A DNA stretch of 64,000 nt from positions 62,001 through 126,000 of IMG/VR virus record IMGVR_UViG_3300026484_000157, one strand, 5' to 3'. The notes under the pieces were generated by a model. That model did no database searches. It saw only the letters and a program-made list of their open reading frames with translations, and was not told where the DNA came from. A program made the translations under genes and the position numbers. Shown here piece after piece: positions 33 to 61,120 of the stretch. Position 1 is the first letter of the stretch, and each line of letters begins with the position of its first letter. The DNA comes from a virus.

Positions 33-767
33 ATGCTAAATAAACTATTTCGGCTATTTAAATCAAAAAATAAACCAGAAGATTCTATTGAGGAAACTTC
101 AAGTATAAACTTTAGTAATTATATGTCACCCAAAGATCTTAGACAAAACTATGAGGTATTAGCAAAAATACCTGAATTGGTTATGCCAAAAAATTCAAAG
201 CCAAATATATTGTTAATGGATGATAACATAGGTACTGTATCTTTTTTAAAAGATGACTTAGAATCATATCATTACCTCGCTCAAAGAATAAGAACTAATA
301 ATCTATCAGATATGTCAGTTAGATTATATAATGTATATAAAGATCTAACTGATAAAGAGATTAATTTCTTAATGAATTTCGATTTATCAAAATATAATAT
401 CATTGAGGCAACAGGAGATATGGCAGGTTTCTCTGTTGAAAATGCAATCAAAAATGGGGCACATTTTGATATTGCAGTATTGGATATTATTTTAGGTGGA
501 TATAAAATATCTAAAAGTGAGAACATAATATATGATGGAATTGATATTTATAAAATGCTCATAGAATCTAACCCAAAAATAATAATCAAATTTTACACTG
601 GTTGTGTTCTCTCAAAATATAGCTATGAATCAATTAAATTCGACAAAATTTTTGGTGATGATATTAATAATTATGCAATTATTAAAGATGAAGACTTCAA
701 ATTCAGAAGAAAACAACTATTAAAAATACTAATTAAATCGGAAAAGCTGATAAATGAAAGCAATTAA
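33..767 (+). CDS. Receiver-domain (response-regulator-like) protein
   Basis: Probably the phospho-acceptor partner of the histidine kinase that follows. A CheY-like receiver fold is seen in the second half: acidic pair D63-D64 after a hydrophobic strand (ILLMDDN), acceptor Asp D151 in AVLDIILGG, T189 in FYTG, and a Lys near 218. The spacing D64-D151 is about 40 residues longer than in ordinary receivers, so there is an insertion. The N-terminal 55 residues are charged and of unknown role. There is no DNA-binding output domain, so output is by protein contact or phosphotransfer. Start has the strong RBS AAAGGTGGGAAATA. It overlaps the kinase gene by 14 bp, indicating translational coupling. 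A degenerate, non-phosphorylated receiver is possible. Confidence 0.75.
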   Translation: MLNKLFRLFKSKNKPEDSIEETSSINFSNYMSPKDLRQNYEVLAKIPELVMPKNSKPNILLMDDNIGTVSFLKDDLESYHYLAQRIRTNNLSDMSVRLYNVYKDLTDKEINFLMNFDLSKYNIIEATGDMAGFSVENAIKNGAHFDIAVLDIILGGYKISKSENIIYDGIDIYKMLIESNPKIIIKFYTGCVLSKYSYESIKFDKIFGDDINNYAIIKDEDFKFRRKQLLKILIKSEKLINESN

Positions 768-26546: not shown

Positions 26547-26654
26547 ATGCCAAAACAAAACATAAAACTAAGAGATAAATTATTGTTAATAATAGCTCTA
26601 GTCGGTGGAATTACTGATTTAATTTTGATAGTTAATGTTTGTCATCATTGGTAA
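26547..26654 (+). CDS. Tiny membrane protein (35 aa)
   Basis: RBS AGAGGGAAAG before ATG 26547. Basic N-terminus (MPKQNIKLRDK), then one TM helix (LLLIIALVGGITDLILIV) and VCHHW. It fits between neighbours without overlap. Unknown role. Confidence 0.5.
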   Translation: MPKQNIKLRDKLLLIIALVGGITDLILIVNVCHHW

Positions 26655-26659
26655 TTAGT

Positions 26660-27031
26660 ATGAAATTAGGAATCATTGGTAGTAGGAATATTACCAATTT
26701 CAAAACTTTTGAGCCATACATCACCAAAATTGTACAAGATGAGAACATAACAACTTTGGTATCTGGTGGTGCAACAGGTGTTGACAGTTTTGCTGAAAAA
26801 TATTCAGTTAAACATCAACTCAAATTAATTCTATATAAACCAAACTGGCAAAAACATGGAATGAATGCAGGATTTATAAGAAACCATGACATAATTAAAT
26901 CTTCTGATATTATATTGGCAATTTGGGATGGATCTTCAAAAGGCACAAAACACTCGATTAATTTAGCAAACAACTATGGGAAGCCTATAAAGATTATAAC
27001 AGTAAGGAGAAAAAATGGCAACAAAACATGA
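26660..27031 (+). CDS. SLOG/DUF2493-family nucleotide-binding protein
   Basis: 123 aa. Rossmann-like start MKLGIIGSRN, then LVSGGATGVDSFAEKY, the hallmark of the DUF2493/YspA branch of the SLOG superfamily, which binds nucleotide derivatives. Start at 26660 begins the domain; a longer frame from 26639 would overlap the upstream gene. Its ligand is unknown. In bacteria SLOG proteins are linked to nucleotide signalling and anti-phage systems, so this may be a ligand sponge or sensor. Confidence 0.75.
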   Translation: MKLGIIGSRNITNFKTFEPYITKIVQDENITTLVSGGATGVDSFAEKYSVKHQLKLILYKPNWQKHGMNAGFIRNHDIIKSSDIILAIWDGSSKGTKHSINLANNYGKPIKIITVRRKNGNKT

Positions 27032-31768: not shown

Positions 31769-31975
31769 ATGAATGATGACAAAATAGAACAACCAGATAC
31801 AGGATTTATTGAAGCATATGGTCAAGTTTCTATGGATGACAATACACAATACCCTAGAGGTGAGAGACCAGAATTTATTCATGTTGATGAAGTTCCAACT
31901 ACAAGAGTGAACCTTACTGAACTGACTCGAACTAAGAACTATACAGTGGAAGATGATGATGGTTACATTGACTAA
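31769..31975 (+). CDS. Small acidic hypothetical protein (68 aa)
   Basis: RBS AAAAGGAATATATT. Acidic and Thr-rich, no motif. Its end overlaps the GGDEF gene by 17 bp. Confidence 0.5.
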   Translation: MNDDKIEQPDTGFIEAYGQVSMDDNTQYPRGERPEFIHVDEVPTTRVNLTELTRTKNYTVEDDDGYID

Positions 31976-32447
31976 GAAGTCAGTACTCAGTTATGAATGT
32001 GAGATAAAAAGGTTAAATGAGTTAGTGAGAGTTTATAGATATGATTTTCTCACTAACCTTAAGATGAGGAGAGATTATTTTAATGATCTCAAAGAAAACA
32101 ATAATAAATGGTTAACTATCATTGATATTAATGATCTTCATACATTGAATCGGCATCCTGATGGTGGATATGAAGCAGGTGATCGATTAATAATCGACAC
32201 AGTAAATGCTCTGAAAGAAATATCTGAAACAGCAAATTTTAACAAAGATAATATCTACAGAATTGGTGGTGATGAATTTGCTATAATCAGTGACCACAAA
32301 ATAGAACAGTATCTAACATCAATAGATAGAATAACTTTTGCTTCTGAAAAAATAATCCATAATACAGACTACTTTAATTTAATAGATATGAAAATTAAAA
32401 CTAAAAAGCGACTCCTTTATAAAAATGCAGAGAAAAGATCAAATTAA
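31959..32447 (+). CDS. Minimal GGDEF-domain protein (diguanylate-cyclase-like)
   Basis: 162 aa, one GGDEF domain and nothing else. YDFLTNLKMRRDYF matches the DxLTxLxNRR entry, WLTIIDINDLHTLNR the metal-binding strand, GYEAGDRLI the GHxxGD helix (His replaced by Tyr) and YRIGGDEFAII the intact active loop. The C-terminus is shorter than usual. It may make c-di-GMP or a related dinucleotide, or bind GTP. A short N-terminal helix could allow dimerisation. Start 31959 is the third of three ATGs, best spaced from GGAAG. No I-site was recognised. Confidence 0.75.
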   Translation: MVTLTKKSVLSYECEIKRLNELVRVYRYDFLTNLKMRRDYFNDLKENNNKWLTIIDINDLHTLNRHPDGGYEAGDRLIIDTVNALKEISETANFNKDNIYRIGGDEFAIISDHKIEQYLTSIDRITFASEKIIHNTDYFNLIDMKIKTKKRLLYKNAEKRSN

Positions 32448-32457
32448 AGGATAACAA

Positions 32458-32814
32458 ATGGTTTCACACCTACTCTCAAATTTAGAGAATGAAGAAATAA
32501 TTGCTAGAGTTCAAAAGATAATAGATGCAATATCTTTCAAAACAATCACATCATCAATGAATGGAGTTAATCCATTAAGTGGTAGTTATGAATCTGCAAG
32601 TGCATCTGTAACTATCGATGCTGACATTTCAGATATCAATCATGACGATATAATGATTGCTAATGTCTGTCTGTCTTATTTAAACAGAAGAGCAGTTTTA
32701 TTATCGTGGTATCAAACTGGACTAATTAAGTCTACTCAATATAAGGAACAATCTACACTTATCTTGGATAGATCAACCAAATTATTAAATCAAATGGCAA
32801 AATCAAATGGTTAA
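32458..32814 (+). CDS. Hypothetical protein (118 aa)
   Basis: Leader AAAGGATAACAAATG (class I-like). Helical with one Ser-rich stretch. Overlaps the ligase start by 8 bp. Not recognised. Confidence 0.55.
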   Translation: MVSHLLSNLENEEIIARVQKIIDAISFKTITSSMNGVNPLSGSYESASASVTIDADISDINHDDIMIANVCLSYLNRRAVLLSWYQTGLIKSTQYKEQSTLILDRSTKLLNQMAKSNG

Positions 32815-34144
32815 TTATGAATTAGACCTTATTGGTCGGTTTGTTTCTGAAATGAAAGCCACAACAAAGGCAAAAGAAAAAGCACTTATTTTGGAACATT
32901 ATCTACTTAATTACACTCATACTATTAGTAGAATTTACAAGATTGCTTTTGATAGTAATTATCAAACATTCATAACTAGTGTTCCAAAAGCTAAAGAATT
33001 CTCTTATGATAAAGATGCATATGATTATTTTGTTGAACTTACTAATAGAATAATCAATGACAACGAACGAATCAAGCGAGATGAATGGGCACAATTGGTA
33101 TTCCTTTTGCAACAGTCTGTTTCTGAAAAAATTCAAGCTATTCTTGGTGACATAATGATCAAAAAATTAACTGTCGGTGCAGGTGTATCAAGTTATAATA
33201 AAATTGCTAAAAGGCTAGGATTGGATCTATTATTTGAGCATAAAGAGATGAAGGTTTCAAATTTGTCTGATGCAGAAATAAACTGGGAATCTGGGGTTAT
33301 GGTAGGCACAAAATATGATGGCTCAAATGGATCATATAAAAAAGGTATAATCTATAGCAGAAACGGAAGTCCAATTTTTACCAAACCAATGGAAGATGCA
33401 TTAGAACCATTAATAGATAGTGGATATGTTATCTGTGGAGAACTTTATAATAAAGAAAGTAGACAATCTGCTAATGGTATTATAAATTCGTGTATAAAAA
33501 TGGGATATGACACTAAATTACCAGTCGAGCAATTATCATTTGCAGTATTCGATGTAGTTCCAATTGAAGATTATGAAAATGGACATTGTGCAATTCCCTA
33601 TGAGGATAGAATTGCTAAGGCTGATGAGCTTATTGCTGAAATAAATCATCCAAAGATTCATGTAGTCGAACAAACGATAGTCCATTCTATGTCTGAAGCA
33701 TACAAGATGTATAGAGACATTAGATCAGACATCACTAAAATTGGCTATGAAGAAGGTATAATCATAAATAACAGAGATGCAATTTATGAAGCCAAAAGAT
33801 CTAAGTATCGTGCAAGAATTAAGGACAAACATACTGCAGACTTATATGTGAGAGGATGGAAACAACATAGAACTAATCCATCAATGGTTGGAAGTCTTCT
33901 TGTTGAAACTTCTGATAAAAGAATATCAGTTTGGGTTGGCTCAGGTCTAAAAGATTCACATATGATAGATTTCTTTGAGAGAAGAGATAATCTAGATGGA
34001 ATCATTGTTGAAATTGAATACAATCACATAATAAAAGGTAATAATGAGAGTGAATTCACTTTTTATTTACCAGTCTTTAAGAGGGAACGAATAGATAAGT
34101 CTGATGTTAACTCATTCGATAATTTAGATGGAAAAATATTATAG
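32807..34144 (+). CDS. lig: ATP-dependent DNA ligase
   Basis: 445 aa; seals nicks with ATP. Motif I GTKYDGSNG holds the lysine that is adenylylated (about residue 167), motif III ICGELYN, motif IV EEGIIINNRD, motif V KYRARIKDKHTADLYVRGW, followed by an OB-like C-terminal domain. Length is close to T4 ligase (gp30). Works with the phage polymerase and SbcCD/RecA in replication and repair. Confidence 0.9.
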   Translation: MVNYELDLIGRFVSEMKATTKAKEKALILEHYLLNYTHTISRIYKIAFDSNYQTFITSVPKAKEFSYDKDAYDYFVELTNRIINDNERIKRDEWAQLVFLLQQSVSEKIQAILGDIMIKKLTVGAGVSSYNKIAKRLGLDLLFEHKEMKVSNLSDAEINWESGVMVGTKYDGSNGSYKKGIIYSRNGSPIFTKPMEDALEPLIDSGYVICGELYNKESRQSANGIINSCIKMGYDTKLPVEQLSFAVFDVVPIEDYENGHCAIPYEDRIAKADELIAEINHPKIHVVEQTIVHSMSEAYKMYRDIRSDITKIGYEEGIIINNRDAIYEAKRSKYRARIKDKHTADLYVRGWKQHRTNPSMVGSLLVETSDKRISVWVGSGLKDSHMIDFFERRDNLDGIIVEIEYNHIIKGNNESEFTFYLPVFKRERIDKSDVNSFDNLDGKIL

Positions 34145-58743: not shown

Positions 58744-59028
58744 ATGGCAAATTACAGAGAGTTGAAAAAGAAATATCAAAATGATCCAGTAATGTTAGGT
58801 TTCGTTTCTTGTGAAGGAGATCTGGACTGTATAAATGAAAAACTGCATGAAGCAGGTAATGGATCAGATTTCACATTACAAGAAATTGCCGACATTTTAG
58901 GAATAACAAGAGAAAGAGTGAGACAGATTGAATCTAGTGCAATTAAAAAATTAAGACACCCTAAAGTTGGTCGGTCTTTAAATACATATGTGCATGAGCA
59001 CATAACTGATACACCTAATGGATTCTAG
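58744..59028 (+). CDS. Stand-alone sigma-70 region 4 protein
   Basis: 94 aa. FTLQEIADILGITRERVRQIESSAIKKLRHPKVGRSL matches region 4.2 of housekeeping sigma almost word for word (TRERVRQIE and KLRHP). No region 2 is present, so it cannot open a promoter alone. It may replace or compete with host sigma region 4 at -35 elements, or bind the RNA polymerase beta flap, as other phage appropriators do. RBS AAAAGGAAATCCATT. Confidence 0.85.
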   Translation: MANYRELKKKYQNDPVMLGFVSCEGDLDCINEKLHEAGNGSDFTLQEIADILGITRERVRQIESSAIKKLRHPKVGRSLNTYVHEHITDTPNGF

Positions 59029-59101
59029 TAATAGAATCCATCTTAAATCAAGATTGTGCACAACTTACATAAAAATGAAATCAAATAAAAAAAGGACTCA
59101 A

Positions 59102-60499
59102 ATGGAAAATGAAACAATATTAGTCGAAGGTAAAATCAATATTTTGCTTGATCATCTATATGGCTCATCTGCTAAAGGGCAAGTATGTGCAGCGATAGCA
59201 GATAAAGAACGACCAAGTATTCTTATTGCTAATCATAGCACATCGGCATCACATACAGTAATGGAAGGGGATGAAGAATTTGTATTTAAGGCTCTACCAT
59301 CTGCAACATTCTTATGTAAAACAAGAGATGACTACAATCCATCAATATTTATGGCAGCATCATCAGGATTTGAAATTGATCAAGTTATCAAAGAGATGAA
59401 ATGGATCAATAATCCAGAAATTAAAGTTTATGTACATCCATATGCAGTTATAGTTCTTCAGGAACATAAAAATCTAGAAGCAGGTCTTAATAGAGATGGG
59501 TCTTCATCTGATAACAGTGGAACATTACATCTTGGATCTACAATGAGTGGACAATCTTATGCATTTGCAGATAAAATGACAAGAAGATCACCATCATCAT
59601 TAGCGAAGGATTATGCTGAGGAACTATATAAACATAATATTATAGTTATGGCTACACCATGGGCATTCCAACTACAATTATTATCAGAATTAGCAAAGGA
59701 TGATGCAACTGCTCTTGCTGAAATGCCACAAGGATTTCCATTGTCAATTGATCATGGACCAGAGTTTCCTTATTCAACATTCAGAAACATTACACCTATG
59801 CAATTATTGGCAGACTTAGGTCTTAATGAAGCATATTTAGGATCAGTTATTGGTAATATTAGATCACTCCCTATCAGAGTCAGTAACAGATTTGTTGGTA
59901 ATAACATGGACAATGTAATGTTATTCGCTAAATTTGATGCTGAAAACAAGATGAGTGAGTCATCTTGGAACACACCAGAGCAACTTGGAATGACATATTC
60001 AGATGTAAATGCAATCACATATGATCTATTGATGGGTAATGAAAAACGATTCAAAAATTGGATCATAACAGACATTAAAGGTGTAACTGGAACATCTGGA
60101 CCATTTGAAGAAGATATGGAGGAGATTTCATGGAGAGAATTATCTGATCATTTAACCTCAATTGCAGGTAAAGATGTAAATGTTGAAGAAATTACTACAC
60201 TTACAAAATTAAATAGAAGAATAGCAAAAATAGCCGATGAGAGATCATTATCTATAGATATGCTGATGAAATTTATGGTAGCAGTTAATCCTACTCATCT
60301 ATCAATCACATTCTTGAACTATATTGATCCAAACTTGGAAGGTGCTACTTCAATAGAGGAGATCAACAAAAGTGAGATATTTAATGATTGGTCTATTAGA
60401 GCAATTGAAGACTTGAGAGAAGCATATAATGGTGAGGTATTTCCAAAAATTACTGCTCTTCAAACTGGTAAATATTTAGAAAATGTAATATTCATTTAA
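59102..60499 (+). CDS. Adenylosuccinate synthetase homologue (PurA/PurZ-like)
   Basis: 465 aa. Landmarks of the family are present in order: YGSSAKGQV at residues 20-28 (where PurA has GDEGKGK), ASHTV (catalytic His), GSTMSGQSYAFADKMTR, QGFPLSIDHG-x3-PY. The catalytic Asp of PurA is replaced by Ser, as I recall for PurZ, which makes the precursor of 2-aminoadenine DNA from dGMP and Asp. The Asp-binding Arg loop is not clear. Longer than known PurZ. The exact substrate is undecided. Start 59102 follows AAAAGGACTCAA. Confidence 0.65.
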   Translation: MENETILVEGKINILLDHLYGSSAKGQVCAAIADKERPSILIANHSTSASHTVMEGDEEFVFKALPSATFLCKTRDDYNPSIFMAASSGFEIDQVIKEMKWINNPEIKVYVHPYAVIVLQEHKNLEAGLNRDGSSSDNSGTLHLGSTMSGQSYAFADKMTRRSPSSLAKDYAEELYKHNIIVMATPWAFQLQLLSELAKDDATALAEMPQGFPLSIDHGPEFPYSTFRNITPMQLLADLGLNEAYLGSVIGNIRSLPIRVSNRFVGNNMDNVMLFAKFDAENKMSESSWNTPEQLGMTYSDVNAITYDLLMGNEKRFKNWIITDIKGVTGTSGPFEEDMEEISWRELSDHLTSIAGKDVNVEEITTLTKLNRRIAKIADERSLSIDMLMKFMVAVNPTHLSITFLNYIDPNLEGATSIEEINKSEIFNDWSIRAIEDLREAYNGEVFPKITALQTGKYLENVIFI

Positions 60500-60511
60500 G
60501 GAGGATATATC

Positions 60512-61120
60512 ATGAGATTAACATGTAAGAAAGAATTTAGAGGTCTTGGGCTAAAACCCAATGACCAAGTGGATGCAACAATCCAAGACGGTGAGTATTT
60601 AATCGATGGTGCAGTATTGATTTCAAAAGCGACTCTAGACGAGCATTTTTCAATATCATGCGATGCTAATGGCAGTGAAGATTCTTCTGTGCAACAGAAC
60701 CAAACAGGAATGCAAATGTTTATTGGTACAAAAACAATAATGGCACGACCTCAGCAAAATGGTGATAAAGAGGGTTATGAAGTTGTCTATGAGGACGGAT
60801 ACAGATCGTGGTCACCTAAAGAGACATTTGAAAAAGCATACAGATTAGATGAGAATTTAACATTTGGTGATGCAGTTCACCTAATGAAATCTGGTCATAA
60901 AATGTCTAGAGCAGGATGGAATGGGAAGAGTATGTTTGTATTCTTAGTGCAGGGATCAACATTCAAGGTAAATAGACCACCATTAAATCAATTTTATTGC
61001 GAGGGTACTGAAGTAACTTATCAACCACATATTGATATGAAAACTGTAGATGGTACAATCGTACCATGGTTGGCTTCACAAACAGATATATTAGCAGAAG
61101 ATTGGGGAGTTGTACTATGA
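60512..61120 (+). CDS. DUF2829 (Tad2-type anti-defence) protein
   Basis: 202 aa. Residues about 115-202: LTFGDAVHLMKSGHKMSRAGWNGK, FLVQ, and VPWLASQTDILAEDWGVVL are the DUF2829 signature. DUF2829 proteins of the Tad2 group sequester cyclic nucleotide signals of Thoeris and related systems. The 110-residue N-terminal part (beta-rich head, then MFIGTKTIMARP and YEDGYRSWSPKE) is an attachment seen in other phages. RBS AAGGAGGATATATC. Anti-Thoeris activity is inference from the family. Confidence 0.75.
   Translation: MRLTCKKEFRGLGLKPNDQVDATIQDGEYLIDGAVLISKATLDEHFSISCDANGSEDSSVQQNQTGMQMFIGTKTIMARPQQNGDKEGYEVVYEDGYRSWSPKETFEKAYRLDENLTFGDAVHLMKSGHKMSRAGWNGKSMFVFLVQGSTFKVNRPPLNQFYCEGTEVTYQPHIDMKTVDGTIVPWLASQTDILAEDWGVVL

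What the first reader, a model, noticed from the sequence alone, without database searches (positions are those of the whole stretch)
31959..32447. Minimal GGDEF protein in a phage
An intact GGDEF active loop in a 162-residue protein with no sensor. It could flood the host with c-di-GMP (stop motility, promote surface growth) or make another dinucleotide. With the two-component system and the Tad2-like protein it suggests a signalling-based takeover.
Basis: partly seen in the sequence, partly recalled or inferred. Interest (0 to 1): 0.75.

Follow-up and report, generated by a model that had tools for sequence, protein, structure and literature searches.

The report
Compact phage-clade diguanylate cyclase (GGDEF)
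A virus of bacteria carries a small, apparently complete version of the bacterial enzyme that makes the signal molecule c-di-GMP, and it belongs to a so far unnamed group of such enzymes found (in what was sampled) only in uncultivated phages, which suggests that many phages make this bacterial signal themselves during infection.

Summary
The gene is real. Window 31959-32447 (or from ATG 31953; 162-164 aa) encodes a stand-alone GGDEF protein (Pfam 3.7e-7, above the curated cut-off) inside the replication-gene block of a 126-kb tailed-phage record. It is not a lone oddity: I recovered 32 relatives in other IMG/VR contigs (147-222 aa, all sensor-less), plus two motif-only members. They form one clade (support 100/97) apart from the best-matching cellular GGDEFs and from the known stand-alone phage GGDEFs of Yuavirus and SP-15. 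Across 33 sequences (median identity 31%) the active-site positions are invariant or nearly so. The N-terminal helix keeps a fixed heptad pattern (dimer stalk). The region after the GGDEF loop is shortened, and residues equivalent to PleD K332/D336/H340 became H/R/Y. AlphaFold2 gives a confident GGDEF fold (pLDDT 94). The query lacks the product-inhibition Arg. Best reading: a compact, sensor-less diguanylate cyclase that dimerises through its own stalk and makes c-di-GMP during infection. Activity and benefit to the phage are inferred.

The parts
31959..32447 (+). Gene of the compact GGDEF protein (162 aa; 164 aa if started at ATG 31953)
   Evidence: clade membership
31948..31952 (+). Shine-Dalgarno-like GGAAG, 6 nt before ATG 31959
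   Evidence: Read from the sequence
31983..32036 (+). Stalk helix, heptad a/d positions V11, Y14, I18, L21, V25, Y28 (numbering from ATG 31953); predicted dimerisation coiled coil
   Evidence: Hydrophobic in 80, 94, 97, 97, 100 and 100% of 33 members; helix 2-29 in the AF2 model
32043..32054 (+). DxLT motif (D31-T34) at the start of the GGDEF domain
   Evidence: D31 and T34 invariant in 33 members
32124..32126 (+). Metal-binding Asp D58 (PleD D327)
   Evidence: Invariant in 33 phage and 17 bacterial rows
32136..32183 (+). Guanine-site and clade-signature segment L62-H63-x2-N66-R67 ... G72-Y73-x2-G76-D77
   Evidence: N66 33/33, D77 31/33, H63 29/33, aromatic or Met at 73 in 33/33; motif scan
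32259..32279 (+). RIGGDEF active loop (R103-F109)
   Evidence: D107, E108, F109, G106 and R103 invariant in 33 members; two further members have H at 103
32406..32408 (+). K152, predicted phosphate-binding Lys (PleD K442) in the C-terminal helix
   Evidence: Invariant in 33 phage and 17 bacterial rows
31769..31975 (+). Upstream 68-aa ORF that overlaps the GGDEF start by 17-23 nt; no family match
32807..34144 (+). ATP-dependent DNA ligase; the only neighbour type seen near the clade's gene in several other phages

Best explanation
A phage-encoded compact diguanylate cyclase. Shown here: the gene, its fold family by sequence and model, residue conservation, and the clade. Inferred: two copies pair through the N-terminal coiled-coil stalk, each GGDEF half-site binds one Mg-GTP (D58, D107, K152; guanine read by N66 and D77), and E108 helps join two GTP into 3',3'-c-di-GMP. 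With no sensor domain and no I-site Arg in this protein, output would be set mainly by how much protein is made. The gene sits among replication genes, so c-di-GMP probably rises early to middle in infection and pushes the host towards its high-c-di-GMP state (less motility, altered surface or matrix), which favours this phage or hinders competitors. Active as a diguanylate cyclase: about 0.75. This physiological role, given activity: about 0.7.
For: Pfam GGDEF above cut-off. Active-site residues invariant or nearly so over 33 phage proteins with median identity 31%. Clade supported 100/97, all 200 bootstrap trees (97 in the quick tree). AF2 pLDDT 94.0, pTM 0.84. Best solved-structure matches are diguanylate cyclases: SadC, SiaD, PleD, DgcB, DgcZ. 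Conserved heptads in fixed register before DxLT. Setting among ligase, UvsX and nuclease genes; ligase near the gene in several relatives. No PilZ or EAL domain in the record, so a product would act on host receptors.
Against: No activity, expression or host data. PleD R446 has no clear counterpart, and K332, D336 and H340 equivalents differ from the canonical enzyme. P0001 misses the TIGR00254 cut-off. Two members have Asn at the D344 position and two have His for R366. The dimer was not modelled. The host is unknown, so it may lack c-di-GMP receptors.
Confidence: 0.55

Rival explanations
1. Counter-defence: the c-di-GMP is made to interfere with nucleotide-based immunity, for example as a decoy ligand, to keep a guard protein quiet, or to offset c-di-GMP soaked up by the phage's own Tad2-like sponge, rather than to change host lifestyle.
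For: Tad2-like domain in the same record. In G021 a Tad2-like gene starts 3 bp after the clade's GGDEF gene, and in G005 the two lie 1.1 kb apart. A review reports strong binding of cGG by Tad2 and that cGG can fill the pockets used for other dinucleotides (PMC12043709). Panoptes shows that decoy cyclic dinucleotides matter in phage defence (PMC12657218).
Against: Only 4 of 33 records have a Tad2-like match, one of them degenerate; here the two genes are 28 kb apart. The adjacency was noticed after the fact and rests on two independent cases.
Confidence: 0.12
2. Catalytically silent or weak protein that binds GTP or pairs with host GGDEF proteins and so alters host c-di-GMP enzymes (heterodimer or receptor role).
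For: Small, sensor-less, with a free stalk helix; K332 and H340 equivalents changed; PleD R446 not conserved.
Against: Strict conservation of the metal and catalytic residues D58, D107, E108 and K152 over a divergent clade is not expected of a silent protein. The I-site Arg needed for known c-di-GMP-receptor GGDEFs is missing in this protein.
Confidence: 0.15
3. The enzyme makes a different cyclic dinucleotide, such as 3',3'-cGAMP or c-di-AMP.
For: The pocket region has clade-specific changes (H63, R67, Y73), and promiscuous GGDEFs exist (Bd0367, abstract of PMC9140294).
Against: The guanine-contact positions N66 (33/33) and D77 (31/33) are kept.
Confidence: 0.08
4. A recently captured bacterial gene, passing cargo without a phage function.
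For: GGDEF genes are abundant in bacteria and do appear in phages by capture.
Against: A deep clade of phage proteins with conserved catalytic residues over 20-40% typical identity; base composition like its neighbours (third-position GC 24% against 21%); no cellular member found, though that scan was cut short.
Confidence: 0.03

Closest known systems
Bacterial diguanylate cyclases with a coiled-coil stalk (Caulobacter DgcB, Pseudomonas SiaD, SadC; Pfam PF00990)
   Same: GGDEF fold, active-site residues, N-terminal helical stalk
   Different: Shorter segment after the GGDEF loop (42-56 against 56-67 residues to the Lys), H/R/Y changes, no other domain, I-site Arg absent in this protein
Stand-alone GGDEF proteins of Yuavirus and Vojvodinavirus phages (MP1412 gp43, YuA gp44, LK3)
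   Same: About 156 aa, phage-encoded, sensor-less; LK3 lysogens reported to make more biofilm (PMC8471281)
   Different: Canonical K..ND..GH residues; outside the clade in both trees; beside a KlcA antirestriction gene in high-GC siphophages
Bacillus phage SP-15 gp150 diguanylate cyclase
   Same: Small phage GGDEF protein (183 aa)
   Different: Full-length canonical domain (PF00990 positions 3-161), inside a sugar and teichoic-acid gene cluster, outside the clade
Panoptes OptS / mCpol (minimal CRISPR polymerase)
   Same: Single minimal palm domain that makes cyclic dinucleotides (PMC12657218)
   Different: Host defence protein; GGDEF motif nearly absent; different nucleotide preference

Membership tests
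GGDEF domain / diguanylate cyclase (PF00990) | Profile match above the curated cut-off | tested here: met
   30.5 bits against 23.8; all 33 clade records pass. TIGR00254 missed by P0001 but passed by relative L021
GGDEF domain / diguanylate cyclase (PF00990) | GG[DE]EF loop, metal Asp, guanine Asn/Asp and phosphate Lys | tested here: met
   D58, N66, D77, R103, G105-F109 and K152 present; conserved across the clade
GGDEF domain / diguanylate cyclase (PF00990) | GGDEF three-dimensional fold | tested here: met
   AF2 pLDDT 94; Foldseek best E 4.3e-7 to SiaD, VIA-align Z about 14-15 to many diguanylate cyclases. A model, not an experiment
GGDEF domain / diguanylate cyclase (PF00990) | Homodimer with facing half-sites | not testable with these tools
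   Only the stalk heptad pattern supports it; no complex prediction available
GGDEF domain / diguanylate cyclase (PF00990) | Synthesis of c-di-GMP from GTP | not testable with these tools
   Needs biochemistry
GGDEF with product-inhibition I-site (RxxD) | Arg and Asp of RxxD before the GGDEF loop | tested here: not met
   F96-N-K-D99 in P0001: Arg missing. Not a requirement for activity
Hypr (cGAMP-making) GGDEF | Ser in place of the guanine-contact Asp (D344 of PleD; own knowledge) | tested here: not met
   D77 here, D in 31 and N in 2 of 33
Yuavirus/Vojvodinavirus stand-alone GGDEF group | Falls within that group on a tree | tested here: not met
   Separate side of a 100/97 branch; 97 in the quick tree
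mCpol / Panoptes OptS | Palm domain with the GGDEF motif nearly absent | tested here: not met
   GGDEF strictly kept; definition from PMC12657218

The most novel reading that the evidence does not exclude
A clade of phage-made c-di-GMP synthases that works as counter-defence: the phage supplies c-di-GMP itself, alone or with a Tad2-like sponge encoded beside it, to satisfy, saturate or mislead nucleotide-based immunity.
Probability: 0.1. Interest if true: 0.87.

Novelty: new variant of a known kind. Interest (0 to 1): 0.6.

Why it matters
Phage diguanylate cyclases have been noted one at a time (Yuavirus, Vojvodinavirus, SP-15, a Mu-like marine virus), without a family view in the papers I could search. 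Here is a recurrent phage clade with its own residue signature and a compact fold, spread over contigs of 6-236 kb. If active, it shows that many uncultivated phages write to the host's central lifestyle signal rather than only react to it, and it offers a very small sensor-less cyclase for biochemistry. The Tad2-adjacent cases connect c-di-GMP with anti-phage signalling in a directly testable way.

Tried and rejected
Single-protein scan of viral contigs gave one hit, L002, a chance match inside a structural protein. UvsX and ligase scans found no relatives of this phage; terminase found only distant ones, none with a GGDEF. The best tblastn hits in 'phages' (MT83 records, L003-L005) are gut contigs whose GGDEF genes are large multidomain proteins of bacterial type, not useful relatives. 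No nucleotide match of the window to known phages. The idea that K332-to-His is unique to phages was rejected: some Clostridia GGDEFs have it. A conserved gene partner was sought and not found beyond loosely recurring replication neighbours. No PADLOC match for the protein. Phrase searches for phage-encoded diguanylate cyclases gave no paper. The first genome contigs attempt failed for lack of a conserved stretch.

Full report
Observation. The window is bases 62001-126000 of a 126,269-base virus record. Pfam GGDEF matches at 3.7e-7, above its cut-off, but only over profile positions 3-94 of 161, and NCBI's TIGR00254 is missed. It is the only GGDEF in the record. The record is a tailed phage: large terminase, a sheath match below cut-off, replicative helicases, and ligase, UvsX and a RusA/PDDEXK nuclease around the gene. 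No nucleotide relative is in the phage collection.

Relatives. A query with the single protein finds nothing useful. A small alignment of diverse GGDEFs (A2) opened a family, and the alignment built from it (A3) enlarged it. A profile from 19 seed members ranks 33 distinct phage proteins, this one included, at 105 bits or more; all are stand-alone, 147-222 aa. The best cellular sequence reaches 99 bits (L140, 203 aa, from a Micrarchaeota MAG contig), and the rest are mostly domains of larger proteins. The score gap alone is small; the trees separate them: SH-aLRT 97 in a quick tree of 132 rows, and 100/97 with all 200 bootstrap trees in a careful tree of 64 rows. Yuavirus and SP-15 proteins fall on the other side. 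An independent DNA motif scan for LHxxNRxxGYx[AG]GD hit 12 contigs: ten already in hand and two new ones, both encoding clade-type proteins, with FHIGGDEF. All 33 records pass the Pfam cut-off. So 'phage-only' means in what was sampled.

Anatomy. In the 33-member alignment (pairwise identity median 31%, range 20-95%) the invariant residues are D31, T34, D58, L62, N66, G76, R103, I104, G106, D107, E108, F109 and K152; D77 is kept in 31 and G105 in 32. By PleD numbering (own knowledge) these include the metal ligands D327 and E370, the guanine contacts N335 and D344, the catalytic E371 and the phosphate Lys K442. The clade differs from the 17 aligned bacterial GGDEFs at three places: K332 is His in 29 of 33 (His also in 4 of 17 bacterial rows), D336 is mostly Arg (21 of 33), against Asp or Asn in all 17, and H340 is aromatic or Met and never His, against His in all 17. 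From the GGDEF Phe to the catalytic Lys there are 42-56 residues instead of 56-67. The I-site Arg is Phe in this protein; most other members have a gap there in this alignment, so I do not claim its loss for the whole clade. Heptad positions of the N-terminal helix are hydrophobic in 80-100% of members, with the other positions of the helix mostly at 3-44%.

Structure. AlphaFold2 on 52 aligned sequences gives pLDDT 94.0 and pTM 0.84: stalk helix 2-29, a beta-alpha core, the GGDEF hairpin at 101-113, one helical turn at 118-121 where the canonical domain has a longer segment, strand 127-133 and helix 140-163. The best solved matches are diguanylate cyclases (SiaD, SadC, DgcB, PleD). The domain is compact, not broken.

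How it probably works. Shown: sequence, fold model, conservation. Inferred: self-dimerisation through the stalk, c-di-GMP synthesis, absence of sensor control, timing with replication genes. The phage record encodes no PilZ or EAL domain, so the product would act on host receptors. Which host state helps the phage is unknown because the host is unknown. Published phage examples point to biofilm or surface effects but are not gene-level proofs: LK3 lysogens make more biofilm, yet flagellar motility also rose (PMC8471281); a Mu-like Cariaco virus carries a diguanylate cyclase (PMC7785012); phage N4 depends on a c-di-GMP-dependent surface glycan (abstract of PMC8669472).

Context. 754-2109 is a membrane sensor histidine kinase with an H-box (HHEMKTPL), N-box and G-boxes. 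33-767 reads like a receiver protein (ILLMDDN, IAVLDIILGG), although Pfam does not call it. A homologous adjacent pair lies in another clade phage, L061. 60512-61120 has a Tad2-like domain. None is near the GGDEF gene here. In relative G021 a Tad2-like gene follows the GGDEF gene directly, and in G005 the two are 1.1 kb apart. Since Tad2 is reported to bind cGG strongly (PMC12043709), this is a lead, but only 4 of 33 records have any Tad2 match.

Verdict. The finding is real and stronger than stated: one member of a phage clade of compact, catalytically intact-looking diguanylate cyclases. The kind of protein is known, and phage examples are known; the clade and its residue signature appear not to have been described in what I could search. 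Takeover by signalling remains to be tested.

Noticed in passing
window 33-767 and 754-2109: A phage-encoded two-component-like pair: a two-TM sensor histidine kinase with complete H, N and G boxes, and an adjacent 244-aa receiver-like protein; a homologous pair lies in L061 (9394-11281, - strand), another phage of the same GGDEF clade.
   Followed up: partly
window 59018-60499 and 60512-61120: PurZ-like adenylosuccinate synthetase (NCBIfam PurZ E 5.3e-34 but below its cut-off) directly followed by a protein with a C-terminal Tad2-like domain; suggests a possible 2-aminoadenine genome, untested.
   Followed up: partly
L087 5971-6929: Clade GGDEF gene followed directly by a 95-aa Tad2-like gene, same strand; a degenerate Tad2 copy sits at the same place in related record G017.
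   Followed up: partly
window 26639-27031: YspA/SLOG-family (DprA-like) protein with homologs near the clade GGDEF gene in L064, L067 and L070; SLOG proteins can sense or process nucleotides.
   Followed up: no
L009 913-3753: 946-aa coiled-coil protein of a gut phage-labelled contig with a C-terminal degenerate GGDEF domain (SMGDIF), a different use of the fold.
   Followed up: no
L140: 203-aa stand-alone GGDEF on a 9.4-kb contig of a Micrarchaeota MAG, the cellular sequence scoring closest to the phage clade; may be a misbinned mobile element.
   Followed up: no
L047, L051, L052, L056, L095, L106: Very long open frames (about 2000-3200 aa) in viral contigs with a weak GGDEF-like stretch in the middle; not examined.
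   Followed up: no
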